A DNA stretch of 64,000 bases, from contig OX579637.1 of the NCBI GenBank assembly GCA_951230915.1, positions 3,038,001 to 3,102,000 on the forward strand. The letters run 5' to 3'. The notes under the pieces were generated by a model, which did not search any database, was not told the DNA's origin, and worked only from the letters and a program-made list of their open reading frames with translations. The DNA is from Antitrichia curtipendula (taxonomy: Eukaryota; Streptophyta; Bryopsida; Hypnales; Leucodontaceae). Of this stretch, positions 4,641 to 48,989 are shown one piece after another. Each line of letters starts with the position of its first letter. Position 1 is the stretch's first letter. The position numbers were made by a program, and so were the translations under genes.

Positions 4641-4775
4641 CCCCGCCGCCATTCTCATTCGGTCTCTTTTCTCTGCGGCATTTTTGCGAGTACGTTTAGT
4701 GAGAGAAAGAGTGGTGAGATAGGATCGGGGTAGGAAGCGGAAGTAAGGTCGGTGCAACTCCGGAAGACCGACAGG

Positions 4776-12332: not shown

Positions 12333-12358
12333 GGGTGATTGCACGCTACGGTCGCCCC
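12333..12358 (+). repeat. Left terminal inverted repeat
   Basis: Begins GGGTGATTGCAC and continues CTACGGT then a C-run. It pairs with 32659-32684. The preceding bases 'gca' belong to the satellite, though CAGGG would also fit a hAT-like start if the boundary were moved out by two bases. Confidence 0.7.
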
Positions 12359-12420
12359 CCTGGCCCGATGTGCAATCAAATGCAATCAATACAAACTGTA
12401 CAACTTTGGTACGCCGCACA

Positions 12421-12469
12421 TCCCGGCGGCTTTATTGGTCAGTTCATCCCGGCGGCTTTATTGGTCGGT
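12421..12469 (+). repeat. 26-bp subterminal direct repeat, two copies
   Basis: The string TCCCGGCGGCTTTATTGGTC occurs at 12421 and 12447, followed by AGT and GGT respectively. It lies about 90 bp inside the left TIR, the usual place for transposase-binding subterminal repeats; that role is inference. Confidence 0.7.
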
Positions 12470-12659
12470 TTGACAGATGACCGTGAATTCAGGGGCATCC
12501 AGAGCCGCGAATGCTTCAGTGGCTTAGTAATATACTTTATTATTGTGTGTGAGGATCTAGCTCCAGGATCGGGGTATCCGTCGTGGTGCTTCATGAGGTA
12601 GACAACTTAGAAGCCATAGAACATCCATTTAGCTAATCCGCTACGTATATTAGGACGTG

Positions 12660-12870
12660 CAAATGAAAACAGTGTTAGATTACAATGTAGGGACTCCTGC
12701 AGTGAGCAAAAACTACACTGAATTTTGCACTGAATTTTGCTGTGTATGGTCTAGAAACTATGGAGAATTTACTTCTTGTAAGTACTAATAGATGTTTTCT
12801 GTACAATTTTCTATACTTCGCATACAAATTTGTACTCGGTTGCTCTTCTGCATGCAATGAGATGACCCAG
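12660..12870 (+). pseudogene. Fragment duplicated from an exon of the 16.6-19.8 kb gene
   Basis: The peptide ALNFAVYGLETMENLLL followed by a GTAAGT donor matches ALNFAMHGLETVQNFTF plus GTAAGT at about 17,140-17,200. Flanking non-coding sequence also matches (GGGACTCC.. against GGGATCCC.., and the TTGTAC-rich intron start). A local duplication of 'cactgaattttgc' precedes it. It is a truncated copy near the left TIR. The sequence from 12,870 to 13,285 holds an inverted match ('gaatttcctctagcg' and its complement near 13,105 and 13,190) and nothing else I can support. Confidence 0.55.
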
Positions 12871-13285
12871 CGTACTCTCCGATGACCAGATCTAATCTGC
12901 GAATGATCTTGGAAGGCGCAATAACGGTATTATGATTGTCTGTTTAATAGTATGGTCCTATTCACCGAATGTTGTGAGGTCACCGTTGCCTTTTCCAATG
13001 CAACTCATTTGCAATGGTGCTTCAAGAAGTGTGCTTGGTCTTGGTGCTTGCTTTGTACGGGTCTTCCTGTGTCTCGTTTAGGGTGTTTGTATTCTCAAGC
13101 TTCTTGAATTTCCTCTAGCGGCGATGAAACCTTCCATTCCTAGCTCACGGATTCCTTCGCCTTTGCACAAACGGATCCGTGAGATCCGCTAGAGGAAATT
13201 CAAGGATCGTTTGTATGGTTCTATACAAACTGTACGCCCAGTGGCACGCCCTTGCGAGTTGACTTCAGTTCTCGGGGATGCGGGG

Positions 13286-16193
13286 ATGGCGAATAGAAGG
13301 CTTCAAGAACGAAGTGCCGGATTCAAGAAGAAGGGACCCCGTGGGAGGGTGGAGGATTATAATGCCATGAGGGAGGGTCTGAGAGATGGGGAAGTTGAGA
13401 GGCAACGTCGACATCGTCAGTTGGTGAGGGAGAGAGAAGAAGCAGCTCGTTTGCTTGTTGTCCAAGATGAAGAATTGGGGGTACAAAGGGAGATGTCTCC
13501 ACGGGAGCAATTGCTTATTTTGGTCGAAATTGTGGATTTCTTCACATTAACGATGCAAGGTTGTCCGGAGGTATCTTCTAGGCTGAAAATCATGGAACGT
13601 TTTTTGGAGGATGAACGTATTTCTCCATTTCTTCATGAATATTATCCTCGCAGAGAGGATGCAAAAGCTCAATTTGAATTCCTCAGAAATTATCGGTCGG
13701 AGTTGGATGCTGTGAAGGGGGTTCAATCAGCAGACATGCTTGCTAGAAAGGCTGTACTCCTAGACGCCTCTACTTCTGCTAGTGTGACAAGCACCAAAGC
13801 TTTATCACGGGTTTTAAAAGTTCATCCAGCTAATTTGAGGGTGGCCATAACCCGCCACAGTACTGTACGTTTGCTCGCAAAACCTTTTGCACTTGCAAAA
13901 CGAAAAAAGAGGCCGGGGCTGCCTGCGGAGACCAAGGACCTCGTTACTAAGTGGTGGACAGAGGAGACGCGTGTCAGCCCCAACAGAAAAGAAATCGTAC
14001 AAAAATGGACGAGTCCGAATACATATGACAAGCACTGCACCCACTACTTATTGGAAAGTCAAGTATAATTCAATTGCTCTCCAATACGTTCATTACAATA
14101 GTTTAGGTACGTATTATACTAATTATTGTACAAAATGTATCACAAGTACACAATGTTCCAGCATCGAGTACTGTTTCTCATAATTCTTTTGCATCTCGCA
14201 GACCGCATTCTTTCATAGGTTTATGGAGGCGCACCCCGACGTCAACGCCAAACAGAGAGCCTTCAAGAAATTGAAGCCTTACTTTGTTAAAACCTGCAAT
14301 GAGAGAAACATATGCTGTTGTAGGTACCATGTAGAGATCAACATGTTGAGGGAAGGATTCAATCGCATTCGGGACGACACGAAGGGAATCCACTTTGTAG
14401 AGAATTGCCAGTGCAGGTGTGAGGTGTGCCTTTTTTGACTACAAGAAGAAGCAAACTATCAAGCACATTTCAAGACATATGCAGGTACGACGGCTCTGTG
14501 GCAAGACATTGTTTGCCCTAAGCCTGAAAATGAAGAGTGGCACGCTTTGCATTGTGTTATGGGTGCGTGCGGTGATTGCGGTATTTTGAAGCTTCATATT
14601 TGTCCTCTTGAATTATCCTCGACTTCAAATTTTACTTGGAAATGTTTTGAAAATGAAGTCATTGGAGTGACACGGGAAGGAAAGCCCCGGAAGAGGATCG
14701 TGGAGGTGTACAAGGAGACTTCTCCACAAGTATTTTTTGAATACTTCAAGTCTAAGTTGCCACAATTTGTCAAGCACAATTTCATTGCGAGGTGGCAAGA
14801 CAACCAGTGCAAGGGTTCTATGCAAGATTTGGGTAAAGATGTGATTTTATCACATATTGACTTTGCCGAGAACTACACCTTCGAGATCCAGAATCAAATC
14901 CAGAGCATGTACTGGTGCTCCATACAGATTAGTATTCTTGTTCACATCACGTATCGCTTTAAACCAGATGGAGCTATAGTGAAAGAGTCACATTTCTACA
15001 TCACAGATGATGCGACCTACGATTCCCTGTTCGTACAGCACTGCTTGATGCAGCACTGGCGATGGCTAGAATCTCAAGGTACTACTGACTTTGTATTACA
15101 TGTATTGATTTTGTACCAATCTTGTACTGAAATTGAAAATGATATGGAGTATACTGACTTTATACGTAAATGGACAGGATTTCGACCCAAGCACCACATA
15201 GTGTGGTCCGACGGCTGTGCGGGTCAGTTCAAGGGTGCTCGACCATTCTATTTCGTGGCCAGATATCCTGGATTAACGAATGGGTGCACGATGAACTGGA
15301 ATTTCTTTGGAACAGGCCACGGGAAGGGAGAGTGGGACGGAGCTGGTGCTGTCGTCAAGCGTGCTTTACAGCAGTCCTAGTTACACAACACGTGGAGGAG
15401 GATGCAAAATGCGCATGATGCTGTTTCGTTCTTGACGGAGACGATGGGAGGGAAGGTCGACACGAACTTCAAGAAGACCGGCATCAAAGAAGTCCAAAGA
15501 TATTTTTGGGAAATACCAAAGGATGTCACGAGGGAGCGTAGTTACCATTGTGAAACAGTGAAAGGTTCCCAGGCTCTGCACTCCATCTACTCTTTTTCTG
15601 TTGCGGATCCAACATAGCTTTTTGTTCGCAAATTGTCGTGCTTCTGTGTTTATTGCCTCGATGGCAATTTCGTCAACTGTGGGAACAAGTCCCACGTTGA
15701 GAACTGGGATTTGGTAAAGTTGAAGCCGCATGATCTTCAAGAAGTTGCTAATCACATGACGGACCACGACGTTCCAGAGGATGAGGATTGGGAGGAGGCT
15801 GTCGAAGGCGAAGGCATTGGCGACCTCATTCGGCCAGGTGACAACTTTACTGTCCCTGCTGCGGAGGGCAATGTAGAGGGAGTGGAGTTTTATATTTTGC
15901 AGTGCACCAGGGGGAAATATGTGGTTGATCACAGCTTCATTTGCGCATGGGGTCTGCAGTTTGAAGCAAGCAACCTCGTCATACGAGGTATTTATTATCA
16001 GAAGTGGAACAATGGTTATGTATTTTTGGGCAACTCCCAACCAACCCATATTGATGCACATCTTATTATCCACGATAAATTTTCTATGATTCCAAAGCCA
16101 GGTAGGCGAAAGGGTGGGGAGGTCACTTACAAATTAAGCGACGACTTTGTCGCTACTATTAGGGCTGGCTTACAGCGGGAAGACGAAGACTAG
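13286..16193 (+). pseudogene. DDE/RNase H-like transposase candidate, two introns, three in-frame stops
   Basis: Exon 1 runs 13286-14062 (MANRRLQERSAG..); intron 14063-14201 has GTATAA and TCGCAG ends. From 14202 one frame continues to TAG at 16191-16193, interrupted by TGA 14436, TAG 15378 and TAG 15615 with no frameshift. A 99-nt intron (15079-15177, GTACTA..GGACAG) keeps frame. The N-terminal half is helical and ends in a basic, Trp-containing segment. Then come Cys/His clusters (NICCCRYH, CQCRCEVC, GACGDCG) that probably bind zinc. The core has three acidic blocks expected of an RNase H-like fold: HIDFAENYT, WSDGCAGQFKG and GTGHGKGEWDGAG followed by VVKR. This pattern is known from uncharacterised, transposon-associated proteins in animals, algae and ferns. 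The C-terminus adds a CFCVYC zinc-like cluster and an acidic segment. Its place beside the left TIR fits the element's transposase. The TGA is followed by CTA, a known readthrough context. Confidence 0.65.
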
Positions 16194-16615
16194 TACTATA
16201 TTTCTTGTATTGTTTTGTACACAACACAACGTTTTGTACATTAACATTCCGTTTTTTACACAAGCATGCCATTTTGTAGACTTCCTTTTGCATTACTTGT
16301 AAACTCCTAATGATCTCTTGTTCGTACTATCCTGAACGCAAAACTTCATGTCCGCACATTTGCTCATGAATGTGCGGTGCTAAGAAGGCATTGAGAGTGC
16401 CATCATTGTCATCTATTTGAATAGCCTTAGGCCTAAGGATTCAATAAATGGGCTCATGAGTCATGGTGTGCGGAATTCCACCTCATGCTGGCTTATAAAC
16501 AGCCTTTGCTTTCATAGGTTGTCAGGTTTTAGTTGCTTCCTAACTTTAGTCTCCTTGCGCCGAGTTCGCCAAGGGTGTCGACTGACGTTGTTTTTGCGAG
16601 ACAATATATGGTTCC
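16194..16615. other. Intergenic, TTGTAC-rich
   Basis: Follows the transposase candidate. Contains repeated 'ttttgtaca' strings near 16,210-16,280 and a 'tgtgcgg/ccgcaca' inverted pair near 16,350-16,376. No open frame with support. Confidence 0.4.
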
Positions 16616-19600
16616 ATGGCTGCGGTACCGACACCAGCGGTGGCGCCTGTCCAAGGGCTGGATGGAGAAATTGTAAGATACGCCTTCCACAAGACCTTGA
16701 CGAAGGCGTCCCTGCGGAATTTGGTAAGTGCAACTTTAATTGTAAGTGCAGTTTTGATTTTAATGTGGGGGGGGTGTCTTGAAAGTTTGAAAGGATGTTC
16801 TCTCAATCTCTCAATTTTGGTCCATGCAGAGGCTGCCCGCATGGTTTTTCCATTCGTATCTACACGAGTTTCAAAGAGCTGAGTTCCCAGGAGTTGTTAA
16901 AGTTTGATATATCGGAAAAATTTATTGGCTGAGAATCCATGTGAACGTATCTTGCACCAGGAAGGGACAACTGCAAGTCCTGTTTCATTTTGGATGGAAA
17001 TATTATTGTCAATTCCATGACTTAGTTGGAGCCGACCGGATCACATTGTGGCGCGTGGAGTAGAACCTTTTTGATGTTTAGGTCCAGAGGAACTTAGACT
17101 TGAACCAAACTGCATAGATAGTACCGTCAGGGATCCCGCTGCACTGAATTTTGCTATGCATGGTTTGGAAACTGTGCAGAACTTTACTTTCTGTAAGTAG
17201 TAAGAAATACATTCTATACAAAGTCATACTTTATTTACAATTTGATACGTGTTGTATAGTTTTGTACTCTGTTATTCTTCTTTATAAAGTGTGGTGATGG
17301 AGCAAGGATGTGCATTCAACAGGGATTGGAAATACAAGAGGTTTTTTGGCCTTCAGTTGTTGTTCAAAGTAATTTGTAATAGGTTATCACGGAATCTGCT
17401 GTTGTGTTTGATGCGTTCTCTCCATTCTGGACTTTTCTTTAATTGCTCTCAATACAAGGTCCATGATTCTTCATTGTCAATTTCAACTACGATTTAGCTG
17501 GAGGTCTCATATTCAGGTTACGCTCATGTGTCTATTCATGCCTCATATGTACACAAACATGGTTTCGGTGTGTCGGAAGGAGAACTAACAGTCGAGCGGA
17601 TTGCTGAACTTGTTGGACGAAACCGAAAGTGTATTCTATGGATGTGTCAATACATTTTATAGATCTCTTTTTATTATATCTATTGTGAGTTTTGTCATTC
17701 AAATAGGTTGTTCAGGGTTGAAGAAAAACTATTAAGTCCAGATCTTAGTCTCAAAGAAGTCGGTGCACTGCCTGCTATTTACGCATTCTAGGAAAAATTT
17801 ATACCTGTGATTGAGTACTCTGAAAAGTTTTAGTTATCAATTTAGCAACGATCTTTAATTTTGGAAACTTCTGTTTCAATTCAGCTTACGGAACTTCTCT
17901 CCATCCACAGTTCTGTACATTTTGTAAAACTAAGTACTTATTGTACAAAATTTGTACAAGTTTGTTTTTGTTCATCGTATCAAACTGAACCATCTTGGAA
18001 GGTTTCGTGGATTCTACGGAAGGCTTCTGCAAAGTGACGCAACGGACCCGCTTTTCCTGTGCTTGTTCGATTGGTTGGCACATCGGAAGCCCCGCAAATA
18101 GACCTGCTCCGTCATACGGCCTCGTCGCCTTCTCGCACTTTGCTTTGCTAGCGCCATTTTGCTTACTGTGCCATTTTGCTCTGTTTTGCTAGCCGAGGTG
18201 CAGAGGTTTGGGTTCTACTGCCGTAGTGGTGTTTGCGTCCTTGTTTTTAATTTGTCTTCTACTAGTTCAGTTTGCGCTCTGAGGATGTCTAACCCTCCAG
18301 TGACTAGTTGCACACTTGTTCAACAGTGTATTACAGATTATTTTCCGTTTCGTACCTCTAGCCTAGTTCAACAGTGCATCACGACTTACTTCCCATTTTG
18401 TAGTACTCAACATTGTTCTTTACATTGTGTGTTTGAGTCTTTGGTTACTTCGACGGACATTTCGACGGGTGGATCCTATATCTCCGAAACTCCGACTTCC
18501 AAGCAAGGTGACATTGCGTATTATCTAGGAATTTGTAGTACTACTGTCGTGAGGAGCAGCAAGGCGTTGTTTGAGCGGTCAGTGACAGCAGAAGCCCCAA
18601 CTTCATCGTCTGATTCAGTGAATCAAAGTATTTCAAAGTTTGTATACGTACTTTACTTCTAATTGCACAGGACTGAAATTTCAACTTACCTATCAGAAGG
18701 TCTGTTTGACTCTTAGAGAATGAGCGTATTGTTCGGATTTAGTTGTATCCTTCAAGTCGTACATTGGACGCTTTGTATTTCAAGCACCCACCTTCTGTAC
18801 ATTGGCAGGATTGGAGGCTAGGTTCGGGACGTACTATCTGCAAAGGCACTCTGTAAGTTACCTCATCAACTAGTACATAATCAATTTCTGCATTAGTTCA
18901 TGTACTTATTTTGTACGAGGGGTACCACTTGTACTGGGACTAAAGCATTTGTACCGATAGCGGTTTTAGGAAAGGAATTATTGTACAGTGCTGCACTACC
19001 ATTTCATGGTTCAAGAATTACGGACTATATCAATTGTTACCAAGGTGTACAGGGTTCAAAGTTCTTGAACCACATTTCGTTCAAGGAATGTAGTGAACTT
19101 ACTATTTGTACTAAGACAGTTGCATTTGTACCGATAGCGGTGAATGAAAAGAATGTTTGTAATGTGCTGCAGTACCATCTTATGGTTTCAACAGTCCTAA
19201 CTGTACTAACTAAAACCAGGGTGCAGGGTTCATAGTTCTCGAACTCAGTTGAGTTCAGAAATTGTAGTGTTTGTAGTCTGTGTACTTACAAATACACTTG
19301 CAGTACTTATGTTACTACTAATCAATCCTCATGGAACAATCATCTTTCATTTACATAAGTAACCATTGTACTTTATATTGTCAGAATAGCTTACTATAGA
19401 GTACAAAAACTGTACATTTCTGATTTTGTGTACTTACAGTCATAACTGTGGTACCTTTAGTACTTTTCGTACTGATAGTAGTACAAAATATTGATCACTT
19501 TCTTCTTTGCTCCGCCATTGGACAGAGGCCGATAAATTGGATTGGAACGCAGCTGCAAATTACAAATTCAGGACTATGGAGTTGTGTACACAAGTCCAAT

Positions 19601-19790
19601 TTGACGAGAGGGACGAGCCAAGCTATGGACCGACCTCTGGAGCTGGGGTTTTTGGGGTACAATTTCTACGACAACGTGGAGCAACGGTACTTCCCCATCA
19701 CTTGCACACCGTACTCTGCTGCACTATCTATACCCACCCGCAACTAGATTTGCTTGTGCTTTTTGTTCGTTGTTTTCATTAACCTTTGGC
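16616..19790 (+). CDS. Unrecognised multi-exon gene, probably decayed, containing tandem PIP-box motifs
   Basis: Not recognised. Exon 1 is 16616-16723 (MAAVPTPAVAPVQGLDGEIV.., ending in a perfect GTAAGT donor). Exon 2 starts at 16830 after TGCAG and reads RLPAWFFHSYLHEFQRAEF. Further coding-looking pieces are GPEELRLEPNCIDSTVRDP..LNFAMHGLETVQNF (about 17,085-17,200, GTAAGT donor), CGDGARMCIQQGLEIQEVF (about 17,290-17,375), HGFGVSEGELTVERIAELVG (about 17,530-17,630), RLFRVEEKLLSPDLSLKEVG (about 17,705-17,790), FYGRLLQSDATDPLFLCLFD (about 18,015-18,075), the PIP-box frame (18285-18662) and WTEADKLDWNAAANYKF.. (about 19,515-19,760). All are on one strand in order, so they probably belong to one or two genes. 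Exon joins are not all consistent by eye. Codon-like conservation between the exon here and its copy at 12.7 kb supports past coding. Confidence 0.35.
18285..18662 (+). CDS. Frame with two tandem PCNA-interacting (PIP-box) motifs
   Basis: Starting at ATG 18285 (MSNPPVTSC), a 16-residue unit occurs twice: LVQQCITDYFPF (18315-18350) and LVQQCITTYFPF (18363-18398), period 48 bp. QQCITDYF and QQCITTYF both satisfy the PIP-box rule Q-x-x-[ILM]-x-x-[FY]-[FY]. PIP boxes dock proteins on the PCNA sliding clamp; some DNA transposases (pogo is the published case) bind PCNA this way. The rest is Ser/Thr-rich and featureless, about 126 residues in all. It may be one exon of the surrounding gene. Confidence 0.45.
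   Translation: MSNPPVTSCTLVQQCITDYFPFRTSSLVQQCITTYFPFCSTQHCSLHCVFESLVTSTDISTGGSYISETPTSKQGDIAYYLGICSTTVVRSSKALFERSVTAEAPTSSSDSVNQSISKFVYVLYF
18925..19275 (+). repeat. ~177-bp tandem duplication
   Basis: 'ttgtaccgatagcggt' occurs at 18949 and 19126. The following text (gtgctgcactaccat.. / gtgctgcagtaccat.., then cagggttc..gttct.gaac) matches with point differences. Two copies, 177 bp apart; not related in sequence to the 178-bp satellite. Confidence 0.7.
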
Positions 19791-20567
19791 GTTTACTTTC
19801 TCTTTTGCTCGTTTCAACCGTCCAGTTGCCTGAGGGTGCCTTAGGTTTTTTTTTCTATTAGTTCTATCAGTAAAAGATCCACTCGGGAACAAATTTCTAA
19901 TCGTATTTTGATGGACAGCAAGCTATCGTGGACGCTATATTCCAGGGGGTGCAGCGCTGAAGATGTAGTCTTCTCACTAGTATCAATTTTTGGTGTATTA
20001 TGAATGGAAGGTAGAACAAGTCACCGTCAATTCAATCTTCAGGCTTCATATTTCGGGTTTACCGCTGTTTTTTTTCTTTAAGTACAACCTTACAAAAGTT
20101 GTGGCACAATTAGTTCATAGAGTGCGTGGTCATTTCTTAGCTTTCACTAAGTTCATGCATTTCCTACCTTTGATCATTTATGGTCATCAGTAAATATACA
20201 TAATCCACGGGTCCGTGTTCTCCCGGTAGTTTGCAACTTATACATGGAAACTGTTTCTTTGTACAATTAGGTACAAAACCTACGAACTTTGCAAAGAGGT
20301 ACCAAACGATGTACCAGATATACCATGGCAGTACACCTTTGTCTTTGAACGTTGTTGCCTTTCTCAAGTACTACAAATATTAACATGTGTTGAACGTTGC
20401 TGCCTTCATCAAGTACCATGAATATTAACATGTGTTGGGTGGCTACCAAGACATATGAGACTGTTGTGAATATTACATTGCAACAGAAGTTTCATAAGAG
20501 TCAGATACCCACCTAACATTGGTTAATTTTGTCAGAATCCACCGAAGTAGATTCTCCACAATGAAAG
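19791..20567. other. Intergenic between the plus-strand genes and the SET gene
   Basis: AT-rich. Includes a short local duplication around 20,340-20,430 ('gaacgttg.tgcctt..tcaagtac..aatattaacatgtgtt' twice, about 54 bp apart). No supported gene. Confidence 0.45.
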
Positions 20568-21885
20568 CTACGGCATGTTTCCACATGTTTGGTCATTCGG
20601 CAAGAGATTGGTGATGTGATGAAGTAGGAGACCGTCAATTACTGTGTCACGGCAGTGAGTGCTACCACACTTACAATAGAACGAAATTACAGGATCTACA
20701 ACATCGACTTGTAGCTTTTGAAAAGTACAACCATAATCCCAAGTGAGCTCTTCAAACGTTGGAATGTCTTCTTGTGCAAAGAATGCAACATGGTAGACTC
20801 TTGGGTCCTTGTCGCCTACTTTGACAGGCACATCAATGAGGTTGGCATCTTCACATCTACAAAAACAAGCAACACTGAAATTAGAAGTGGACATAGCACA
20901 AGTACCGTCAACAAGGCTCCCGGCTTAACAAACCAGTACACATTCAATATCTTTTGTACAAATCAATACAAATTGACTGTACATTATTAAAATCACAAGG
21001 CACAAGTCCAGAAAAATACCTGTGGTTTAGAAAGCGACTGACATTTCCCATGACAGTGCTATCTATGCACAATGCCACATCATCGGTGACCTCCTGCTCG
21101 GATATCCAATCGGCGTCCAATGCTAGCGTGAATGCCTCCGATTTCCCCATTTCTCCCAAAGCTCTCCGTTGCATGAGCTCAGCATTTGTAACAATCTCTC
21201 CTACATATTCAAAGACAAAAGTCCCTTTGCAAATTCTATGCTTTGCGTGCAATCCCCAGCCCTTCTCTCCAGCCCAAAAAACCTCTATGGGAATGCGTAA
21301 TCCTCTCTGAACCACTCTATTGCCGCAAGAACTATTGCAGTTGCAAGAGTTGTTGCATTCTTCAAGAAAAAATCGGTTTGTATGACCAGGACATGCAAAA
21401 CCCGGCTCTTGACAACATTGTACAGTGCAGAATCACGTCTCTTCCATCGACACCAACAAGCGTACAAAACAGTGCATAGTTAGTATTTTCTGTACAAATC
21501 AGTACAAGACACATGTTGGTACAAAGAATAATGAAATTGAATGGTTGCAAGAGGTAGAGAAAAAAACCCTAAACCGCAATGAACTTAGCGTTGTCCTCTC
21601 AATTCAAGAAATACTTACATGTTTTAGGATTGAACTCCGTAGACGCCCTCGTTTGTTATACGCCAAGCACAAAAGTTTTTTCACCCGACAACAGCATGCA
21701 TGCCCATGACAATTACGCTCACCACATTGCCAAGAAACGAGGAAATCCATCTTCACTTTAGCCAAACTCTTTGATGCAATTGTAGATAGCTTGGATTGAG
21801 AACTATAAGTAAATTCCTCTAAAGCACGGAATCCCATACTCGGACCAGATACCGTGATTGGGACTCTTTCTAATCCGTTGGACAA
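20568..21885 (-). CDS. SUVR4-like SET-domain histone H3K9 methyltransferase (C-terminal exons)
   Basis: Three exons read on the minus strand. Exon A, 21885 down to 21619, ends at a GTAAGT donor and carries the start of the pre-SET zinc cluster (SWQCGERNCHGHACCC). Exon B, about 21440 to 21020, has CPGHTNRFFLEEC, CNCNSSCGNRVVQRG, then the SET core GWGLHA, YVGEIVTNAEL and ALDADW. Exon C, 20856 to 20571, begins in the middle of the NHRCEDAN cofactor motif, which splices together exactly (CACAG|gtattt, tttttgtag|ATGTGA), and continues ELTWDYG and the post-SET CKCGSTHCRD. Pre-SET, SET and post-SET all look complete. The order and the GNRVVQRG and NHRCEDAN blocks match the plant SUVR1/2/4 group, which methylates H3K9 and silences transposons. 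Here the gene lies inside a putative transposon on the strand opposite the transposase candidate. N-terminal exons, including any WIYLD domain, are not identified. Confidence 0.85.
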
Positions 21886-22083
21886 GTTGCTTGTATCATA
21901 CCAAAATTGTTCCTATGGACAGAAATGCAACTTCAAAAATAGTATCATACCAAAATTGTTCCTATGGACAACAATGCAACTTCAAAAATATGTGAGCTCA
22001 TTAGAGAGAAATGGAACTTTAAACTATGAATTACAAGTGGCGACGAGGTGGACTCCTGGCCCAATTCACTGGTGCTGATTTGT

Positions 22084-23451
22084 TCACTTTGGATCTACTC
22101 TGCTTGGTTTTTTAACTTTTTTTACGCCTTTTTGGCTTCCCTGTGTCTTGAGCCTTTTGCCTCTTCTTCCTAAATTCCACAAAAAACACATGTGTGTTAA
22201 CATTGGTACATTTTGCAAGTATGTTGTAGACATAAAAACACTAGAAATAATGACAAATAACATAATACCCGGATCTTGTTGTTTGTCCCGGTTCAGCAAC
22301 CCCAGCTTCGCCTTCCTCGCCCTCACTAGCTTCTACATCTAGTCCCTCTTTGGTACAAGTGTCCTGCCCCCCCCAACTTCACCAATGCCTTCAGCTTCAC
22401 CAATTGTCCCCACAGCGGCTTCAAAAGCACCCGCGACAGTGACATGGGCTTCATCAGACACGGCTTCAACCATGAGGGGCTCTGGAGCAACGGTGACGTC
22501 CTCAGCCGCGGCTTCAACCACCTTTGGCTCTGGAGCAATGATGACGTCCTCAGCCACAGCTTCAACCACCGGGGGCTGTGGAGCAACAACTTCATCAGCA
22601 ATGGCTTCAACCACAAGGAGCTGCGGAGCAACGATGACGTCCTCAGCAATGGCTTCAACCACAGGGGGTTGTGGAGCAACAAGGACGTCCTCAGCAACGG
22701 CTTCAACCACAGCGGGTTGTGGAGCAACGGCTTCATCAGCCATGGCTTCATCAACCACGGGGGGCTGCAGAGCAATGGTGACGACCTCAGCCACCATTGC
22801 TTTATCAACCGCGTCAAGGGTGGATTCTTTAGCGACGTCAATGGTGGATTCTTCAGCAACGGTGACGGTGGATTCTTCAGCAACAGTGATGGTGGATTTG
22901 TCACCAATGTTGACTATAGCTTGATCACTCACAGCTTCAAGAGCATCAGATTCTCCAGCACCCGTACATGAAACACTCGCTAATACGCAGTCAGTCACCC
23001 CGGCCATAGTTGCCCTAGTACATTCCTCACAGCCAATACAGAAGGATTCAAAACTGCCGTGCACCAACACGTGATCCCCTCCCTTTCTAGCAGTGGCTGA
23101 TGTAAATGGCAGCGCCTCTGCTTCCGTCCTACATTCCAACACAGCATTCGGTAAACCCAATACGCCTAGTACGCTACGTACTGCAGGATGTACACAACTA
23201 CGAAAGCAACAAAAAATTGACTGGAAGATTTAGAAATAATATTGAGGTACTATTGATGCTGCCTTAGCCAGTTGCAGCATCCTAGACTCAATACTCGGTT
23301 CGCCGATGGGAGCCCCACATACGCCAGAATTTCCTCTCCCTCCTTCTCCATCCGATGAACCAAGCTCTGCACCATAACACAATCTACAACTGAGTGAAGA
23401 AGGTTTTGTCCCAAATTCGGGGCTTAAACATACAAACAAGGTACATATCAT
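22084..23451 (-). CDS. Acidic Val/Ala/Pro repeat protein with basic tail; possible N-terminal part of the SET gene
   Basis: Not a recognised family. An exon at about 23,420-23,235 (FGTKPSSLSCRLCYGAELGS.., two CxxC-like pairs, ends near a GTACCT donor) joins through TTTCGTAG to a long exon from about 23,205 down (VHPAVRSVLGVLGLPNAVLE..CIGCEEC). That exon then has about eight degenerate 16-18-residue repeats of the form VAPQPPVVEAVAEDVIV (about 22,750-22,440), preceded by shorter VAEEST repeats. The frame breaks at a run of eight C (22367-22374); shifting one base there gives a further acidic stretch (TKEGLDVEASEGEEGEAG) and a GTATTA donor. Then comes a Lys/Arg-rich exon (about 22,190-22,090) resembling a nuclear localisation signal. 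It is only about 200 bp from the SET exon A and on the same strand, so both may form one gene. Confidence 0.4.
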
Positions 23452-23569
23452 AACAGAAAAGGTACAACTTCAAATTTGTACATACTCAAGGTACAAAGTA
23501 TACAATCCAGGTAGGCACAAAATTACTTGGAATACCACAAGGACTGCCTAAGTGCAAACAACATGGAAC

Positions 23570-24035: not shown

Positions 24036-24123
24036 AACAACCTTTCCTAAACGATGTACCCAACACAATACAAAATTGATAGAGCATGATATCCCAATTC
24101 CAAGTCCCAGAAACCATATGAAT

Positions 24124-25875
24124 CTAACAAAAATGTAAATACCTTGCACTACACGTACCAATCAATACAAAGGTGTACCAATCAGAATGCAGTTGTACAA
24201 TATTACCTTCCTCCTCGATGGCTGATCTACTACGCTGGATGGCTGTACGAAATTCTGCTGCTGCGTTATTCCTAGCTGCTAGAAATTCTGCTGCTGCGTT
24301 ACTCCTAGCTGCTAATCCTCTAGTGATAGCGGTGTCACACTCTGCCTGTAACTTCGTCCACTCTTCACTCCCACCTCCAGGGCGACCACAGCCACGAGCA
24401 CCCCTCCAACCAAAACTCATGATCCATTCAATGGGTTGAACCTTCTTGCAATATAGAGCGGAGCATTGTATGCCATTGGTGAAGTTCACCAATGCACACC
24501 ATGGATGATATACGTGTCTGCATGCGGCGACAATCATCTCAGAATGGGGGAAAGGAAAACCGCACAAGGAGCACTTTTCATTTGGTGTAGTGCTAGTGTT
24601 TGTGTCTGCTTTTGCTTTCCCTGCGACATACACCATGGGTAACGGTCGCATGTGAAAACCGCAAGATGCACGTCCCAGGTAAGCATGCTCCTCCTGCAAC
24701 GCACGAACCTGCATGCGCATCTTTACAACTCGGTGGCTCTCCAGGTTGAGTGTCTCCTCCAAAGTAGCCACTTTCTCCTCCAACTCCTTCAATTTACTAT
24801 GCTCGCCACTTAATAAATCGTTGGCTATTTCCAACTTGTCACTTAGCACCACTTCCCCCGTTCCATCTGGGTTGGCTGCACGGAACTCCTTCTCATAACC
24901 CTTTTGTCTCAGCTTCATGATCTTTAGTAACCCCCTCTGATAATTCATGGCTTCGTCATGCTTTTCTTTGGCTTTAATAGCATTCTGCTCAGCCTCCAAT
25001 CTAGCCTCGAGCTCTAGATTCTCCACTGCCAGCAACCAGCCCAAATACTCCAACCTGGAGTTGCACTTGTTCTCCTCCAACGCTATTCCGCCCATTGAGC
25101 TTCCTCTCCCCTCGCAAATCTCTGACTGCAACTCGCATTTGCCCACGTGAATTTTTCGCCATTGCCGGGTGACCATTCCGGTGTTCGGCACCTTCGCCTT
25201 TTGCAACCGGATGGTGTCCTTTGCGACCCTTTCCCGTTGGGTCTTGTTTGTGACTTCTCCATAGGCAGCCCAATTCACCGATATGTTTTGTTCCTCCAAA
25301 ACAATCCCTCTGGCCATCTTGTGAAGAAGCAAATTGCAAGGAACTTCTCGTTGATACAGAGCTTGTAGGAGCTCTTTGATCCTCTTTCTAATCCTCGTTG
25401 ATTGGACATCCTTCCAATTGTAACCATACCGTCCTTCTCTACCCACCGATTTTCTAAATAGTTTGATACACCGAGTGTCGTCAAACGGTTTGCCTTGCCA
25501 TTTCGTTAAACGATTTGGCAAGTACCCTTCATTCTTGAACCCGTACTTCTTCAAGAAATTGGCTCTGGTGAGCGCCGGTGGTGGGTCAGGTAGCTTTGGC
25601 CTATCCTCGCCCTCGCTGTTGCCCTCGTCGCTGCTCTCAGCCTCACCCTCCTTGCTGCAGTTGCTGCCATCGTTGCCGTCCTCGCTGCCTTCCTCGCTTC
25701 CCTCCTTGCTCTCCTCGTGTTCAGAACGAGGACTGGGAGCAATGGGAGGGCGAGCGGATGACTTCGCCTAGCTTACAATGGGAGGACGGGCGGATGAAGC
25801 TGCTTGGGATGACTTCTCCGTCAGTGCTCTTGCCCGTAGTACCTCGACAGATCCTTTACCCTTCACCTTCGACAT
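24124..25875 (-). CDS. Coiled-coil RING-H2-like protein 1, one in-frame TAG
   Basis: ATG at 25875 (MSKVKGKG). A single frame runs to about 24,124 with one internal TAG at 25768-25770. Layout: basic/Ala N-terminus with a duplicated SSARPPI segment; very acidic Glu/Ser/Gly region (about residues 45-90); a conserved block beginning FLKKYGFKNEGYLPNRL with Trp/Lys/Arg-rich sequence; a long coiled coil (LEARLEAEQNAIKAKE.. to LEEKVATLEETL); then a zinc-binding module CSLC..CRHVYHPWC..CSALYC. This fits the RING-H2 core C-x-H-x2-H-x2-C, but the last pair is spaced C-x4-C instead of C-x2-C. A tandem Ala-rich repeat (SNAAAEFLAARNNAAAEF) follows. RING-H2 proteins are typically E3 ubiquitin ligases; with the altered last pair that is inference. 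The final residues may be intron read-through. Paralogous modules lie at 31.2 and 41.1 kb. Confidence 0.6.
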
Positions 25876-26789
25876 ATCTTGCCTCAACTGCACGAAATCC
25901 CAATTTATTGTCAATTTTCATCCTAAACTAAACATCACGTTTTGAAGAAAATGAAATCCACATTTACAGAAAGAGGTGGGGACTAACCGCACACATTCCG
26001 ATACAATGCGTACATATTTGTACGCATAGTAAAAACTTGGAAGTGGAGTTTGGTCACTGACTTCCTCCACACCCTGAATTGTGATTCATGCATTAGATTA
26101 GACCACCAGGAAACTGTCAATAAAATCGTTGGCTTGGACATGTAAACCCTACGTCCAAGGCATTCGTCGAAAGTAGTGAATCGCGCACCAACACTACCAT
26201 CAACAGTTCGTATAGTGCAACCTAAAACGCTAGACAGTTCTTTGAAAGCAAAGAATCTCGTTACCAAGACAATGCCTAAACCCAATGCGACAATTAGGAC
26301 GCAACTCACCTCTTTTTCTTACACCCCGTCCACTCGCCAGACAATGGTTCGGCCTAGTTCGCCTTCCCTTGCAAATTGCCCTAGTTTGCCCTAGTTCGCC
26401 ATTCCCTTCCAAATCGACGCAACAAATCCACCTCTTGGCTCATTGAACCATTCGCAAATCGCAAACAAAGGGCGCAAAACACAAACCAACGAGAACACCA
26501 TTGGAAAGTAAGCGGAGAGGGGCACACAGCGAGAGAGAAAGCTCCCACCCAAAGCGGTCAACCGTGGGACCTCAACCGGGTACCACCGGTCATGACGTGA
26601 CTGCTTGAGTACCACAGGTGACGACATGACCGCTTGCCCTCCGTCGAATCATGACTACCAATGAATGCAATTCCGTGTTGTAAATATTATGCATTCTAAA
26701 CATGCGTTCTGTTAGCAAAATGGTAGATGAGAAGCTCAGAAAATATAAGTTCTTGGTTTTCAACAGGTTCCCTCTTGAACTCTAAAAAA
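25876..26789. other. Non-coding stretch between RING gene 1 and the 257-bp repeats
   Basis: About 25,880-26,650 is mixed-composition DNA with scattered short frames but no domain or splice logic I can support. It contains 'gttcgcc'/'ttgccctagtt' repeats near 26,350-26,400. From 26,650 it becomes AT-rich. Confidence 0.4.
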
Positions 26790-27730
26790 GCATACTCCTA
26801 AATTTCTAAATTAAAGAAATGCTTGTTGGTCCTCAACCACATTAATGGGTGTTGTTCTTTTTAATAAAGGTTTAATGTCACACGTTTTGAATGGGAGAAG
26901 AAGTGGGTGATGGAATCAATTGGATTTTCATATATTTCGGTGAAAGAAATACCCAACGCTAGTAAACCAAAAAAATTGGATAATTAAAAAAATGGCCACA
27001 GAAAAAAAAAAAAAGATAATAAAAAAAATTAGGTAATCAAAAAATGGGTATTCTAGTTCATACAGTTCCACAAAGAAATGTTGGTTGGCCCTCAAACACA
27101 TTAATGAGTGTTGCTCTTTTTATTAAAGATTTAATGTCGCACTTTTTGAATGGGAGAAGAAGTGCGTGATGGATTTAATTGGGTTTTCATATACTTCGAT
27201 GAAATAAATATCCAATGCTAGTAAACCAAAAAAATTGGATAATAAAAAAAATGGCCACCAAAAAACAATAGATAATAAAAAAAAAATGGGTAATCAGAAA
27301 ATGGGCATTCTAACTCATAGAGTTTCACAAAGAAATGCTTGTTGGCCCTCAACCACATTAATGGGTGTTGATCTTTTTATTAAAGATTTAATGTCACACT
27401 TTTTGAATGGGAGAAGAAGTGCGTGATGGATTAAATTGGGTTTTCATATATTTCGGTGAAATAAATATCCAATGCTAGTAAACCAAAAAAATTGGGTAAT
27501 AAAAAAATGGCCACCAAAAAACAATAGATAATAAAAAAATAAATGGGTAATCAAAAAATGGGCATTCTAGCTCATGGAGTTTCACAAACAAATGTTGGTT
27601 GGCCCTCAACCACATTAATGGATGTTGTTCTTTTTATTAAAGATTTAATGTCGCACATTTTGAATGGGAGAAGAAGTGCGTGATGGATTAAATTGGATTT
27701 GAATATATTTCAGTGAAAGAAATACCTATC
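26790..27730 (+). repeat. ~257-bp AT-rich tandem repeat, about 3.6 copies
   Basis: The phrase 'cctcaaccacattaatg' recurs near 26,828, 27,087, 27,341 and 27,600. Each is followed by a Ttattaaagatttaatgtc block, then 'aatgggagaagaagtg', then A-runs with 'aatggccac'. Spacing is 255-259 bp and copies differ by few substitutions. Low-complexity A8-A15 runs separate units. Confidence 0.9.
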
Positions 27731-28272
27731 TTCTTATATGTTGCCTTATCCCTAAATTGTTTGGTGATTAATAATAAATGAAAGACACCACTTTATTTTT
27801 GAAAGTGAAGTACTAAATCATCAAAATCCTCAATAAAAATTTATATTTTTTATTAAATGAAGGACAAGGCAACATTAAATTTAAATTATTGGACGTTGTG
27901 TCTTCGTAAAGAAAAAGTCATGTAATGGGATTGTTTTGATTTTCATAATGGGATTATTCAACCACAAAAAACATGACTTCAAAGTCTTCATTGTTTTTTA
28001 TGGTTGAATATTCCCTTTATGAGAATAAAAATAACCCATGTTACATGATTTTTTGCAAGATTAACAAGATATGTTTCGTTTAAAATATTTACATTAATTG
28101 ATGATTGAAGTATGTTTATTATTGTGAAGCTCAAATTCTCAACCATTTTGAGTGACACATATCTTTCTATGTTTTTATCAACAAAACATTACTTAAAACA
28201 AGAGTGACTCATTGTATGCACTCATGTTCTTTAGAAAACAACACTGAGACAAAATAAAGGTTTAAAGGTTTT

Positions 28273-28335
28273 TAGAGTGTAGGATTTAGGTTAGGTTTAG
28301 GGTTTAGGGTTTAGGTTAGGTTTAGGGTTTAGGGC
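28273..28335 (+). repeat. Interstitial plant telomere-like repeat
   Basis: Alternating TTTAGGG and TTAGG/TTTAGGTTAGG units, about eight in all, immediately followed by a T-run. A single short tract, so an interstitial repair scar or element-borne sequence rather than a telomere. Confidence 0.8.
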
Positions 28336-29289
28336 TTTTTTTTTGGAACTAAAAATAAACTGGGAACTTGTATTTTTGTAAAGACGGAAATTGTGTTTCT
28401 GTGCACATGGGATGCCAAGCTTTTTGTGCTGATATGACAAAAGGCCTGTCTGTTTTTGGAGTGTGCGGAGGGCGATGAATCTCTATTTAGACACGACAGT
28501 GGAGGTCGGTTATTGGTTGCCGAGGTACAACGCGTACGCTTATGTACAACCTAAGATTCAAAACCGAATACAGAACACAAGTTTCTTGTGTAGAACACGT
28601 TATGCAATGTAGAAACTGGAACTTAAAGCACAAACACTTTGCAAACTGTGGGAATGCACAGTAATTGAAGGCCGATGGTGTCAAACCATTCCAGCCTGCG
28701 CTCATGAAAAGAGGAGAAAAGGTAGGATTCCGAATAAAAATCAGCTAATTTAGCATTGGGCAGACGATGCTGGAGTCCGGAAAGAACTCGGTACACGAAG
28801 TTGGAGTCTGGAATCCCTAGACTCTTCCTGTTTTTCTTAACTTTCTTCTACTTATTCCACTGATTCCTCCGCAGTCATGTTCGTGGTCTTTTGTTGTGTT
28901 ATTGCACATAACGGAATTGAAGCCTCCGAAACACATTACACATTTTTTAACAAGAAAATTTATAAAATATCCAAAACATACGCAAATGCAAGTCGAGAGG
29001 CGTTTTTTTATGTAAGAAGGCCTCAGAAAAAGGTGTAACTACTGCAGTAATTAAGAAAAATTCAATGTTTTCCGTTGTACGAGTTCATACATATTGTACT
29101 AAATGGTACAGAACAACTTTGCAGAACTCACCAAGTGCACACTAATTGAAGGGCGCCGATGCAAAACCGTGCCAGACTGTGGTCATGAAGATCGGAAAAA
29201 TGAGCATTCCGAATATAAAACTACCAATTTAGTACACAATGCTGGAATTGCAAAGACTTCAGTGCAAGTCGTTTTTTTTTTTTTCCCAC
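28336..29289. other. Non-coding, contains a locally duplicated 100-bp segment
   Basis: The stretch near 28,610-28,760 ('gcaaactgtgg..cacagtaattgaagg..gatg..caaaccat.ccag..ctg') is similar to 29,115-29,260 ('gcagaactcaccaag..cacactaattgaaggg..gatgcaaaaccgtgccag'). No supported gene. Confidence 0.4.
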
Positions 29290-31423
29290 TGTAGGCCCAA
29301 GGACCGAGTTGTTGTTGGTGTTTTCTCCCGCTGCCTTCACCCCAGCTGCCTGCATCTGACAATCGTAATTGTCCAAATTCCGCAGAATTATGTTGACAGT
29401 TTGATCGGCTGCCGCATTCCATGTAAATTGGTTACGCAGGAGAAGACTCACTAGAGGATGCATCCGGGGAAGTGTAAGCCCCGGACTCTTGCTCTCCTCC
29501 TCAAAAACCATGGCCATGAACAAGCAAAGTTCTTGCTTATTCACTAGGTGTCCACGAATGAATGCCATTACCTACACCAAAACAACAATAAACAAAGAAG
29601 TAAACCACAAAGCACAGGAGGCGCACATTATCCAAGATACAACGTAGTACCACACCCATTGAAAATGAAGAACTTCTACTAAGCCTATGAAAACAATACA
29701 CACCCACCCAATGTCGTGGATTGCAGGAGCACCCAAAGGCAAGAGCACAAGAAGTCAGAAGCACAAGAAGGCTCACAATGTAGTAACCGACTTTGCTCAA
29801 AGATAGGAGCACAAGAAGGAACACAAGAAGGATCAAATGGGAAGGAGCCCTTCTCTAAACATCCTCACCCTCATGATTAGTACTTGAATCACATATTGTG
29901 AACATCCTCACCTTCATAATGAAAGTACATCTTACTCGAATCATATAATGTAAACATTCTTTAAGAAGTCACTTCACTTAGTTTTCAAATTTTTCAAATT
30001 AGGAAGCACGGTGTTTTAGGGCGTAAGCATAGGCAAAGAGTTTCAGGGTGACAGTATGTCAAATGTCACTGTAATTTTTTTTAAATGTGCCAATTGACAA
30101 AGCGTACAGATTTTGTACAGTGCGTACATATTTTTCTGCAAACTAAACCAAATGCAACGTGGACACTAACCAAGCGGCGTAATCCTGTGACTCTTCTTGG
30201 TTTTCTTGTATTTCTTCTTTTCTACTTCTACTTCTTTGGTTGATTCCTTCGCAGTCATGTTTCTGGTCTTCTGCTTGGTTACTGCATTGTCATCATCTAT
30301 TGGAGGGAGTGGTGGGGGCTGAAGCACCTTCACCACCGCCGTAGTCACTCCCTCTGCCCTAGCTTCTTCTCTCAACTTCTTGCGGCGTTCTAATTCTGCA
30401 GCTTCTTCTCTCAACTTCTGTAGTCTTTCATAATCCACTTCCTCCTCTGTCAAATTTTTGATGTGCTCATGCAGGTCTGCCTCAATTTCAATCTTGCAAG
30501 ACATAACAGGATCCTCATCTTTTGCTGGGGAGTCGACTTCCTCTATAGATGGTAGACCTGGAAGTGCAGGAAGTTCAAGACGTACAGTCTCAGGTACAGA
30601 AGGTACAGGACGTTGTACAGAATCACTTTGACCTCGGTTGCTACCAGCGGCGTTGCCGTTGCACAGGCTTTGTGACACAAGAATCTCACTGACCCTGAGC
30701 ACGGGATCTGTCTCTGTAAAACTGACAGTGGGTGCCTGTGTGCAAATTTGGAATTCCTGCAATTGCTCTTGGTATACTTTCTCTGGATCTGAAAAAGAAA
30801 CGAGAAGAGGTCAAGTAACGTAATGTGATGGTTTTCTAGTGTCGCATACTAATTTAATAGCTGAAACCCTGAACTCTACAATTTCATCTAATGATACACA
30901 CCTCACGTCACGTACTGACTTCTGTACAATTAGTACTGAATAATATACAAGTTTCGACAGCTGCTTGAGGAAAATCTGCAAGGAATCGCACCAATATGTG
31001 GATGGGAGTCCAAAATTGTCGATGTCAAGGCTTCCATGAGACTGTCTTGCTCCTCTTCTAACTTCAAAGATTGTACCAACTGTTCAAGAGCCGAATGCAA
31101 CTTGCCGAATCCAAAACTGTTGAACCACGAGGGATGCACTGTTGCACGGCAAGAGTTATCCGCACATATGTTGGATTCTCTAAACCAAATCCCTGCGCAC
31201 CACGGGTGATAGACATGACTGCATGTGCAAACGACTATGTCGTTGAGGGGAATCCCGCTTAAGCATAGTGCACAGGACGTCAAAGAAATGGTACTCAACC
31301 CTAAAACAATATTGGGGTCAAATAAAGAGGCTGATCTTCGTCCTTGACCTGAAAGAGGCTGTCAGGCTTGTTATCCCTGGAGAAATCGTGGCTGCGTACA
31401 CACCACTCTTCATCGGACGCCAT
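29290..31423 (-). CDS. RING-H2-like gene 2 with charged coiled-coil exon
   Basis: Minus-strand exons: a short first exon at ATG 31423 (MASDEEWC..); a RING exon from about 31,302 to 30,950; a charged exon 30788 to about 30,170 (acceptor TTTTTCAG); and an exon of about 29,571-29,295 (acceptor GTGTAG). The RING exon reads CALC..CSHVYHPWC..CADNSC, the same altered RING-H2 as gene 1 with C-x4-C at the end, followed by a conserved F..FGFGKL motif and a coiled coil (LEQLVQSLKLEEEQDSL). The charged exon has an acidic start, a Glu/Arg/Lys heptad region (LREEAAELERRKKLREEA) and a strongly basic tail (KKKYKKTKKSH). The last exon is unrecognised (VFEEESKSPGLTLPRMHPLV). I cannot make the phase of the first intron fit cleanly, so the exact start is uncertain. 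Confidence 0.5.
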
Positions 31424-32658
31424 TGTACCCTAAACCGCAAATCAAAAAAGAAAACTTTCGTAAGAGAGTACAATATATACTAAAATAGTACATAATAAAC
31501 TTTAACTTGTACAGTGCACAAGTGGTTGTACAGATGAACTTATGGTCTCATTGTAAGTACTTGTGCAATGTTGTACAAGCACTTGCGCGTTGTTGTAAGC
31601 ACTTGCGCGATGTTGTAAGAACTTCTGTATAGAAAGATAAACGCCTATCTGAAAATGTACCGAATGTATCTGCACAAATACTGAATGTATTCGAAATCGT
31701 TTGCTTGTCCAGTGATTGTACGAGTGAATGTGAACTTATACAGCAACTGTTTATCGCGGAAGAACTAAAGAACAATGCGGAACAAATAATGAAGGAGCAC
31801 GCCCTCTAACGCAAAGTTCAAAATTGTTGTTTACAAGAAAACAAGTGAGAAAACAACGTCGGCAAACGCTTGCGCTTGCGCGGTTCCAACGCTGGCCACC
31901 GAGATCCAGCACCTACTCCGTCGACGAAGACATTGCAGTTCATGAACATTTTTTTTTGAATTTGGAGGAAGAGGGAATGTCGCTGAAAAAGCTCCCCGAA
32001 GCGCCGGAATTTGCAGGTAAAGCCCGATTTAGAAAAGGCGTGGCGGACGATTATTGGTCCATTATGTACAAACTGTACAAATTGTACAACCAGGTATGAT
32101 AAGCAGACCGTGAAGGCTTCTACAAGCTTCAAGCTGGAAAATAGAGCACAAATCTCCGATAGAGAAACTCTAAGCCAATATGAAATTTATATGAAAACTA
32201 AATGATGACCCATATGAAACATTATGTGTTCTTTTAGGTTTTCAAAAGAATAATTCAAAAAAAATAATTTAAGGTCAAAATTTTGCACTTGTACTATAAT
32301 ATACATTTTCTAGGCTATTTTCTTATGTAGATTCTAAAACACTAATTAAGTGCCTAGTCTAAGTACCTAAACATTAGAGCATTGCATTCTTCTCTTTGAA
32401 TTGTAAAAAAGAAACTTTCAACTAAGCAAAAAAGAGTACAACATACTAAAGCTGAATTTGTGACAGTACAAACCTTTAATGTTTGTACTCTTTACATTAA
32501 ATTAATAGATGAAAATCACTTTTTATAATGCAATTATCAATATATGCAAGATATAAGATGCCAATCTATTTTTTTATTTTTTTTTAAGTCAATAAAAATA
32601 TAAGAAAACTGACTCCAAACTTTCATCCTGTATAGAAATTCTGTCGTGACAAGAATTT
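31424..32658. other. Right end of the 20-kb element, mostly non-coding
   Basis: 31,500-31,620 holds short direct repeats of the form 'aagtacttgtgcaatgttgt..' (four degenerate copies, about 25 bp). 31,824-32,090 on the plus strand has a coding-like stretch (EEGMSLKKLPEAPEFAGKAR.. ending KLYNQ with a GTATGA donor), perhaps a lone exon. From 32,200 to the TIR the sequence is AT-rich with A/T homopolymers and nothing I can support. Confidence 0.4.
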
Positions 32659-32684
32659 TGGACAACCGTAGTGTGCTTTTACCC
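32659..32684 (-). repeat. Right terminal inverted repeat
   Basis: The complement begins GGGTAAAAGCACACTACGGT, then TGTCC. Compared with the left TIR, two CpG sites have become CA or TG, as expected from methylated-C decay. The following base starts satellite sequence (acacaaac..). Confidence 0.7.
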
Positions 32685-45770: not shown

Positions 45771-45777
45771 TTGAATG

Positions 45778-46100: not shown

Positions 46101-46112
46101 TTGGAGTGGATT

Positions 46113-48985: not shown

Positions 48986-48989
48986 AATA

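What the first reader, a model, noticed from the sequence alone, without database searches (positions are those of the whole stretch)
12333..32684. A 20.35-kb TIR element carrying chromatin-modifying cargo
Seen: the non-satellite segment between two blocks of the same satellite starts and ends with matching inverted repeats (GGGT....GCAC.CTACGGT, about 19 of 25 positions), exactly at the satellite borders. Inside are a transposase candidate next to the left end, a SUVR-type SET methyltransferase, two RING-H2-like genes, a PIP-box frame and an acidic repeat protein. Known: giant TIR transposons with cargo exist, and H3K9 methyltransferases silence transposons in plants. Inference: this is one mobile unit, of a type I cannot name, that has captured host regulatory genes.
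Basis: partly seen in the sequence, partly recalled or inferred. Interest (0 to 1): 0.92.

Follow-up and report, generated by a model that had tools for sequence, protein, structure and literature searches.

The report
Giant plant transposon carrying chromatin genes
A family of 17-26 kb jumping DNA in what is probably a moss or liverwort carries its own histone-methylating enzyme, RING-type proteins and a small protein with PCNA-binding motifs next to its transposase, and most of these genes appear to be kept by selection, so this mobile DNA seems to bring its own chromatin-control kit.

Summary
12333-32684 is one copy of a multicopy TIR transposon. Its ends match 19/25. The first 200 bp match 22 other places in the same 400-Mb genome over at least 192 bases (capped). 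Of six other copies fetched, five have both ends, the same gene regions in the same order, 21.4-25.8 kb, and perfect 4-bp target duplications. The window copy has none; its transposase and second RING gene are broken.

The cargo is conserved. Two further families (B; D, 16.9 kb, TSD GGTT) keep transposase, PIP-box protein, SUVR4-type SET methyltransferase and RING-H2-like protein; in D the PIP gene lies upstream of the transposase. 75 of 140 SET loci lie within 15 kb of a transposase hit, all 75 convergent and downstream; 55 of 69 RING1 loci have SET beside them in one order. One A copy against one B copy gives dN/dS 0.09-0.13 (transposase), 0.23 (SET), 0.20 (PIP), 0.28 (RING1) in the true frame; the post-SET exon (0.68) shows no constraint.

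The transposase has an RNase-H fold and no Pfam family. That the element controls its own chromatin is inferred. SET-carrying DNA transposons are known from oomycetes, so this is a new variant.

The parts
12333..12357 (+). left terminal inverted repeat
   Evidence: 19/25 match to the right end; same end (one with a G-to-A) in the 6 other copies fetched
32660..32684 (-). right terminal inverted repeat
   Evidence: seen in 5 of 6 other copies
13193..14065 (+). transposase, first exon region (open here)
   Evidence: dN/dS A vs B 0.23-0.25
14205..16190 (+). transposase core; in-frame stops at 14436, 15378 and 15615; probable 99-nt GT-AG intron 15079-15177
   Evidence: 117 homologs, alignment A1 with a gap in the homologs at the intron, AlphaFold of relative P0001 and integrase-like fold; dN/dS 0.09-0.13
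18285..18662 (+). small protein with two tandem PIP boxes (QQCITDYF, QQCITTYF) and an SETPTSKQG motif
   Evidence: found in families A, B and D; dN/dS 0.20 in this frame
20568..20856 (-). SET gene, post-SET exon (CEDANLIDVPV ... ELTWDYG ... YCKCGSTHCRD)
   Evidence: frame not distinguished by dN/dS (0.68)
20857..21019 (-). SET gene intron (GT-AG) between NHR and CEDAN
   Evidence: the 4 metagenomic relatives in the alignment (P0126, P0134, P0139, P0144) run on or break at the same residue
21020..21432 (-). SET gene, core SET exon (SUVR4-type)
   Evidence: Pfam SET, PDB H3K9 methyltransferases E about 1e-30, dN/dS 0.23-0.33
21607..21912 (-). SET gene, pre-SET exon
   Evidence: dN/dS 0.33
22339..23229 (-). 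acidic repeat frame, possibly a 5' exon of the SET gene
   Evidence: weakly constrained, dN/dS 0.53-0.88 over 62-76 codons
24124..25767 (-). RING1: coiled-coil RING-H2-like protein, 547-aa open frame
   Evidence: 8 homologs, best 60%; 69 loci in own genome; dN/dS 0.26-0.28
26813..27724 (+). 257-bp minisatellite, 3.5 units here, more in some other copies
30166..30810 (-). 214-aa open frame of unknown role
   Evidence: present in the 5 other end-to-end copies, one with a stop; only part aligns in family B
30930..31329 (-). 3' remnant of RING2 (532-aa frame in copy C1:34.0 Mb); 5' part deleted here
   Evidence: dN/dS 0.20-0.25

Best explanation
This is a decayed copy of a giant, multi-gene terminal-inverted-repeat DNA transposon that is multicopy in this land-plant (probably bryophyte) genome. 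Shown: paired ends, 4-bp target duplications in complete copies, a core gene set of transposase, tandem-PIP-box protein, SUVR4-type SET gene and RING-H2-like protein(s) found in three families, and signs of purifying selection on most of these genes between families A and B. Inferred: an RNase-H-type (probably DDD) transposase cuts at the TIRs and inserts with a 4-bp stagger; the PIP protein ties the process to PCNA and so to replication; the SUVR-type enzyme methylates H3K9 on the element or its targets, with the RING-H2 proteins acting as E3 ligases in the same pathway. My preferred function is that the element sets its own silencing state: it keeps itself, or its new insertions, in a mild heterochromatin that limits damage and host counter-attack. 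I give that function about 0.4 and the transposon identity about 0.97.
Against: Within family A, pN/pS over 6-7 copies does not separate most cargo from a control frame (SET core 0.83, RING1 0.59, PIP frame 0.51, control 0.51; transposase 0.30-0.37), so cargo constraint shows only between families, and there from a single B copy. Shifted frames are not neutral controls, since constraint on the true frame inflates them. The post-SET exon shows no frame signal (0.68), and TE_B has CC for CR after the last zinc motif. The WIYLD ubiquitin-binding domain of SUVR4 was not found in the three SET-strand frames of L030 or in the window scan. RING matches are below Pfam's cut-off. 31 of 55 distant transposase hits have no SET hit within 15 kb and 65 of 140 SET loci no transposase hit. 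The window copy has no TSD. No expression or chromatin data.
Confidence: 0.85

Rival explanations
1. Anti-silencing kit: the SET and RING proteins disarm host silencing, for example by competing with or degrading host SUVR/SUVH machinery, as plant Vandal elements and fungal TET-carrying transposons are thought to do by other means.
For: Precedents named in PMC12730594 (passages); RING-H2 proteins fit protein turnover; conserved cargo.
Against: The catalytic motifs of a repressive-type methyltransferase are kept in A, B and D, which a mere decoy would not need.
Confidence: 0.35
2. Targeting: the methyltransferase or its mark steers new insertions into heterochromatin, a safe haven.
For: The window copy sits in satellite DNA; family A/B loci are over-represented on one chromosome, C5 (24 of 67 SET loci against 9.3% expected).
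Against: The 5 TSD-bearing copies show no common target sequence and none has this satellite in the flanks fetched (203-296 bp left, 3.9-8.3 kb right; 0 hits); C5 enrichment can also arise from poor removal of old copies.
Confidence: 0.13
3. Passenger cargo: a large transposon that happened to pick up host genes with no function for the element.
For: Within-family pN/pS of cargo is near the control.
Against: Between-family dN/dS in the true frame 0.20-0.33 for SET, pre-SET, RING1 and PIP, and the same kinds of genes beside a transposase only about 44% identical (family D).
Confidence: 0.07
4. The window unit is an assembly join or chimera, not an insertion.
For: No TSD in the window copy; the satellite position overlaps by 24 bases at the two edges.
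Against: The same ends recur with different flanks and TSDs. A recombinant between two insertions explains the missing TSD of this one copy without touching the family.
Confidence: 0.03

Closest known systems
HarbingerS and MuDR families of Phytophthora that encode a SET histone methyltransferase (Kojima and Jurka 2014, cited in PMC12730594; passages of the latter seen)
   Same: DNA transposon with its own SET methyltransferase gene
   Different: Oomycete hosts and named superfamilies; I did not see those reports themselves and could not compare sequences or other genes
Sola2 transposons (described in PMC3627910, passages)
   Same: 4-bp TSD, short imperfect TIRs, elements with accessory genes
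   Different: Sola2 TSDs there are AT-rich; ours are mixed; no Sola2 protein was available to compare
Arabidopsis SUVR4 and plant SUVR4-like proteins
   Same: pre-SET, SET, post-SET motifs; about 40-51% identity
   Different: TE_A/B and TE_D fall outside the clade of plant SUVR4 and Closterium, TE_D being the nearer; no WIYLD hit
SETMAR/Metnase
   Same: SET domain associated with a DNA transposon
   Different: A host gene fused to a mariner transposase, not separate genes carried by a mobile element (recalled; abstract start of PMC9062482; PDB 3bo5 matched)
Starship and other giant cargo transposons (PMC6431247 passages; PMC11623301 title and abstract start in listing)
   Same: Giant mobile units with gene cargo
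   Different: Fungal Starships use a tyrosine recombinase (recalled) and variable cargo; here a DDE-type transposase and a recurring core set

Membership tests
TIR (class II, cut-and-paste type) transposon | paired terminal inverted repeats | tested here: met
   19/25 in the window, 18-19/25 in 5 other family A copies and 19/25 in one family D copy
TIR (class II, cut-and-paste type) transposon | fixed-length target-site duplication | tested here: met
   4 bp in 5 of 5 complete family A copies and 1 of 1 family D copy; absent in the window copy; not tested in B
TIR (class II, cut-and-paste type) transposon | RNase-H-fold DDE/D transposase | tested here: met
Sola superfamily | 4-bp TSD | tested here: met
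   not specific to Sola
Sola superfamily | transposase homologous to Sola transposases | not testable with these tools
   no Sola reference sequence held
Kolobok / piggyBac | TTAA-specific 4-bp TSD | tested here: not met
   CGCA, ATCT, TGTC, AAGT, GGTT besides one TTAA; definition from PMC9587614 passage
HarbingerS | Harbinger-type transposase and SET gene | tested here: inconclusive
   SET gene present; no Pfam family reached its cut-off with the transposase pieces or 9 homologs; the 3-bp TSD of Harbinger is recalled, not looked up
SUVR4-type H3K9 methyltransferase | pre-SET, SET and post-SET with catalytic motifs | tested here: met
   Pfam Pre-SET 7.5e-13 and SET 3e-8 in family D
SUVR4-type H3K9 methyltransferase | N-terminal WIYLD domain | tested here: inconclusive
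   no PF10440 match in three frames of L030 nor of window 16500-31501; split exons could hide it
RING-H2 E3 ligase | C-x2-C ... C-x-H-x2-H-x2-C ... C-x2-C zinc ligands (recalled) | tested here: inconclusive
   first six ligands kept, last pair is C-x4-C in RING1 and RING2 of A and B; below Pfam cut-off

The most novel reading that the evidence does not exclude
An old, previously undescribed clade of plant transposons in which a PCNA-binding protein, a ubiquitin-ligase-like RING protein and an H3K9 methyltransferase form a co-inherited chromatin module with the transposase: a selfish element that writes its own heterochromatin.
Probability: 0.45. Interest if true: 0.92.

Novelty: new variant of a known kind. 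Interest (0 to 1): 0.82.

Why it matters
Plants silence transposons with H3K9 methylation. Here the transposons themselves carry, and seem to keep by selection, an enzyme of that very pathway together with RING-type proteins and a PIP-box protein. If active, this makes the question of whether a transposon can set its own silencing level directly testable, offers ready-made parts for epigenome editing, and shows that a set of several genes can be stably co-inherited on a cut-and-paste element in plants.

Tried and rejected
Rejected: a chance inverted repeat; assembly artefact for the family; retroelement or virus origin (no such domain in frame scans of 16500-31501; the integrase resemblance is the general RNase-H fold); insertion aimed at this satellite as a family habit (0 satellite hits in the flanks of the 5 complete copies). 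Led nowhere: viral contigs with the transposase alignment (16 pattern matches, 0 confirmed); phage records with one transposase piece; Foldseek alone (best hit NurA, TM 0.10, not meaningful; the fold claim rests); PDB sequence search of the transposase; comparing contig lengths between the transposase, RING1 and SET protein lists by eye to prove linkage in other species (none equal that I saw); family D right end in the C3 copy (the C3 copy aligns to the C1 copy only as far as 19048 of the stretch, so the right end comes from the C1 copy). Not done: right-end genome search (unanswered each time), structure of RING1, genome-wide search with the PIP protein or RING2, right end and TSD of family B. 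Literature: 10 searches; for SET-carrying transposons, for giant or bryophyte elements; no title or abstract start listed there describes a plant TIR element with SET, RING and PIP genes; the library is open-licence only.

Counts: one search lists 41 matches, one of them the window itself and some of them short or overlapping pieces; 22 others cover at least 192 of the 200 bases. From 150 printed SET rows of 152 matches I dropped nine second pieces and one short isolated match (C2:42369960); some of the 140 kept are still partial. From 83 RING1 rows I dropped 14 second pieces. From the printed transposase rows of 194 matches I kept 127 first pieces; further matches were not listed. The chance figures are simple density estimates.
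Full report
What is there. The window lies at G000:C5:3038001-3102000 of a 400-Mb, 303-contig genome. Three blocks of a ~178-bp satellite flank two insertions. The second, 12333-32684, begins and ends with inverted repeats matching at 19 of 25 positions; the next best minus-strand match to the left end in the window is 15 of 25.

It is a family. The search with the first 200 bp lists 41 matches (capped); besides the window, 22 cover at least 192 bases at 71-82%. I fetched six copies. All six share the left end in different flanks (one with a G-to-A change); five also have the right end within the 30 kb fetched and are collinear with the window element in pieces of 91-96% identity, with some insertions and deletions. 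They are 21.4-25.8 kb long, each with a perfect 4-bp duplication: CGCA, ATCT, TGTC, AAGT, TTAA. The sixth (C3:24.47 Mb) aligns only as far as window position 25823. The window copy has no duplication (TGCA against ACAC), and its two satellite edges overlap by 24 bases of the monomer; a recombinant between two insertions is my guess. None of the five complete copies has this satellite in its fetched flanks (0 hits). The window copy also has three in-frame stops in the transposase and has lost the 5' part of RING2 present in other copies. One copy (C4:6.07 Mb) has the second transposase frame open over 669 aa.

The cargo is a recurring module. Family B (C9:1.04 Mb, two stretches of 10 kb, right end not reached) shares the TIR start, transposase (73% in exon 1, 80-86% in the core), SET (69%), RING1 (67%) and RING2 (61%). 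Family D (C3:17.27 Mb, C1:40.32 Mb) has a transposase only about 44% identical in the core, with an uninterrupted 707-aa frame, a SUVR4-like SET gene with Pfam Pre-SET and SET, a RING protein downstream of it (27%, E 8e-37) and a PIP-box protein upstream of the transposase. Genes were read in the C3 copy, the right end in the C1 copy, whose middle I did not fetch but whose transposase and SET hits lie at the same spacing. The C1 copy is 16,927 bp with TIRs 19/25 and TSD GGTT. The small PIP protein has two tandem PIP boxes and an SETPxSKQG motif in A, B and D; the PIP consensus is recalled. RING1 and RING2 are paralogs (26-28%, E down to 1e-36).

Genome-wide linkage. Of 140 SET loci, 75 have a transposase hit within 15 kb; 75 of 75 are on the opposite strand and downstream; about 1.3 pairs are expected by chance. 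By SET identity to the window: 16 of 20 (86-100%), 36 of 47 (60-83%), 7 of 20 (49-55%), 16 of 53 (<49%). Of the 55 more distant transposase hits, 24 have a SET hit and 31 do not, so the module is not universal, or its SET is too distant in some families. Of 69 RING1 loci, 55 have SET within 12 kb, all 55 in the same order and strand, and 46 also a transposase.

Selection. For one A copy against one B copy, NG86 dN/dS in the true frame is 0.09 and 0.13 for two transposase blocks, 0.23 SET, 0.33 pre-SET, 0.28 RING1, 0.20 PIP; the shifted frames of these genes give 0.65-2.56, which are not neutral controls but show that the signal is frame-specific. With up to five A copies against the same B copy, transposase core is 0.10-0.12, SET 0.27-0.33, RING1 0.26-0.28, RING2 0.20-0.25, transposase exon 1 0.23-0.25. 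Against this: the post-SET exon gives 0.68, like its shifted frames; the acidic repeat frame 0.53-0.88; and within family A, cargo pN/pS (0.46-0.83) is mostly not below a control frame (0.51), only the transposase clearly is (0.30-0.37). I take the last as decay after insertion; the between-family values measure the lineages that kept jumping.

The SET protein. The best hit is an unnamed metagenome protein (71% over 45% of the query); the best named hits are plant SUVR4 proteins at about 40-51%; the best solved relatives are H3K9 methyltransferases such as DIM-5, G9a/EHMT2 and Clr4 at about 1e-30 to 1e-29. A, B and D keep GWG, NHRC, (E/A)LTWDYG and the CxC zinc motif. The tree of 33 sequences puts A, B and two metagenome proteins in one clade (100/100) and D with P0155, P0139 and P0144 (97/93), beside plant SUVR4 and Closterium; with midpoint rooting and unequal branches it cannot say whether there were one or two captures. 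The SET gene keeps an intron between NHR and CEDAN, which would fit capture as genomic DNA; whether the host gene has it was not tested, and no host SUVR gene of this genome was read.

How it may work. Arabidopsis SUVR4 binds ubiquitin through a WIYLD domain in vitro and makes H3K9me2/me3 (PMC7218100, passages; that review's wording on which product needs ubiquitin differs between two passages). A transposon with both a SUVR4-type enzyme and RING-H2 proteins suggests a ubiquitin-linked H3K9 module; but WIYLD was not found here, so direct ubiquitin sensing is unsupported. I favour self-imposed heterochromatin over anti-silencing because the catalytic motifs are kept, but only modestly.

Novelty. 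SET-carrying DNA transposons are known from Phytophthora (HarbingerS, MuDR; cited in PMC12730594, passages). My searches listed no plant TIR element with this gene set. I therefore call it a new variant of a known kind.

Noticed in passing
window 3697-10529: A first insertion in the same satellite, with ends TGTCGCA...TGCAACA and a 5-bp duplication ACACC, but no direct LTR repeats found; a related frame sits inside family A copy C1:34.0 Mb, at its 13.2-15.2 kb.
   Followed up: partly
window 32685 and 10530: Both insertions resume the satellite at about the same phase (ACAC...), although the TIR element has no TSD; unexplained.
   Followed up: no
G000 contig C5: The window's chromosome carries 24 of 67 SET, 25 of 72 transposase and 27 of 69 RING1 loci of families A/B against 9.3% expected, many with stops; perhaps a sex chromosome or low-recombination chromosome.
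   Followed up: partly
G000, e.g. C7:16225452, C1:41022055, C3:15564: Further multicopy SET families matching only residues ~50-155 of the query, without a transposase hit nearby; possibly other transposon types that carry SET genes.
   Followed up: no
window 37258-52242: Two inverted hAT-like copies (DUF659, hAT dimerisation), blocks 79-94% complementary, about 10-14 kb apart.
   Followed up: partly
window 59561-60088: DUF7869 domain (E 5e-39) with LDNSAKDNKN and GHTHEDID motifs, likely another transposase family.
   Followed up: partly
window 40706-41662: Another RING-H2-like frame outside the element, weakly similar to RING2 (E 3e-6).
   Followed up: partly
window 28271-28334 and 44612-44651: Short telomere-like TTTAGGG runs inside the element and in the hAT region.
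   Followed up: no
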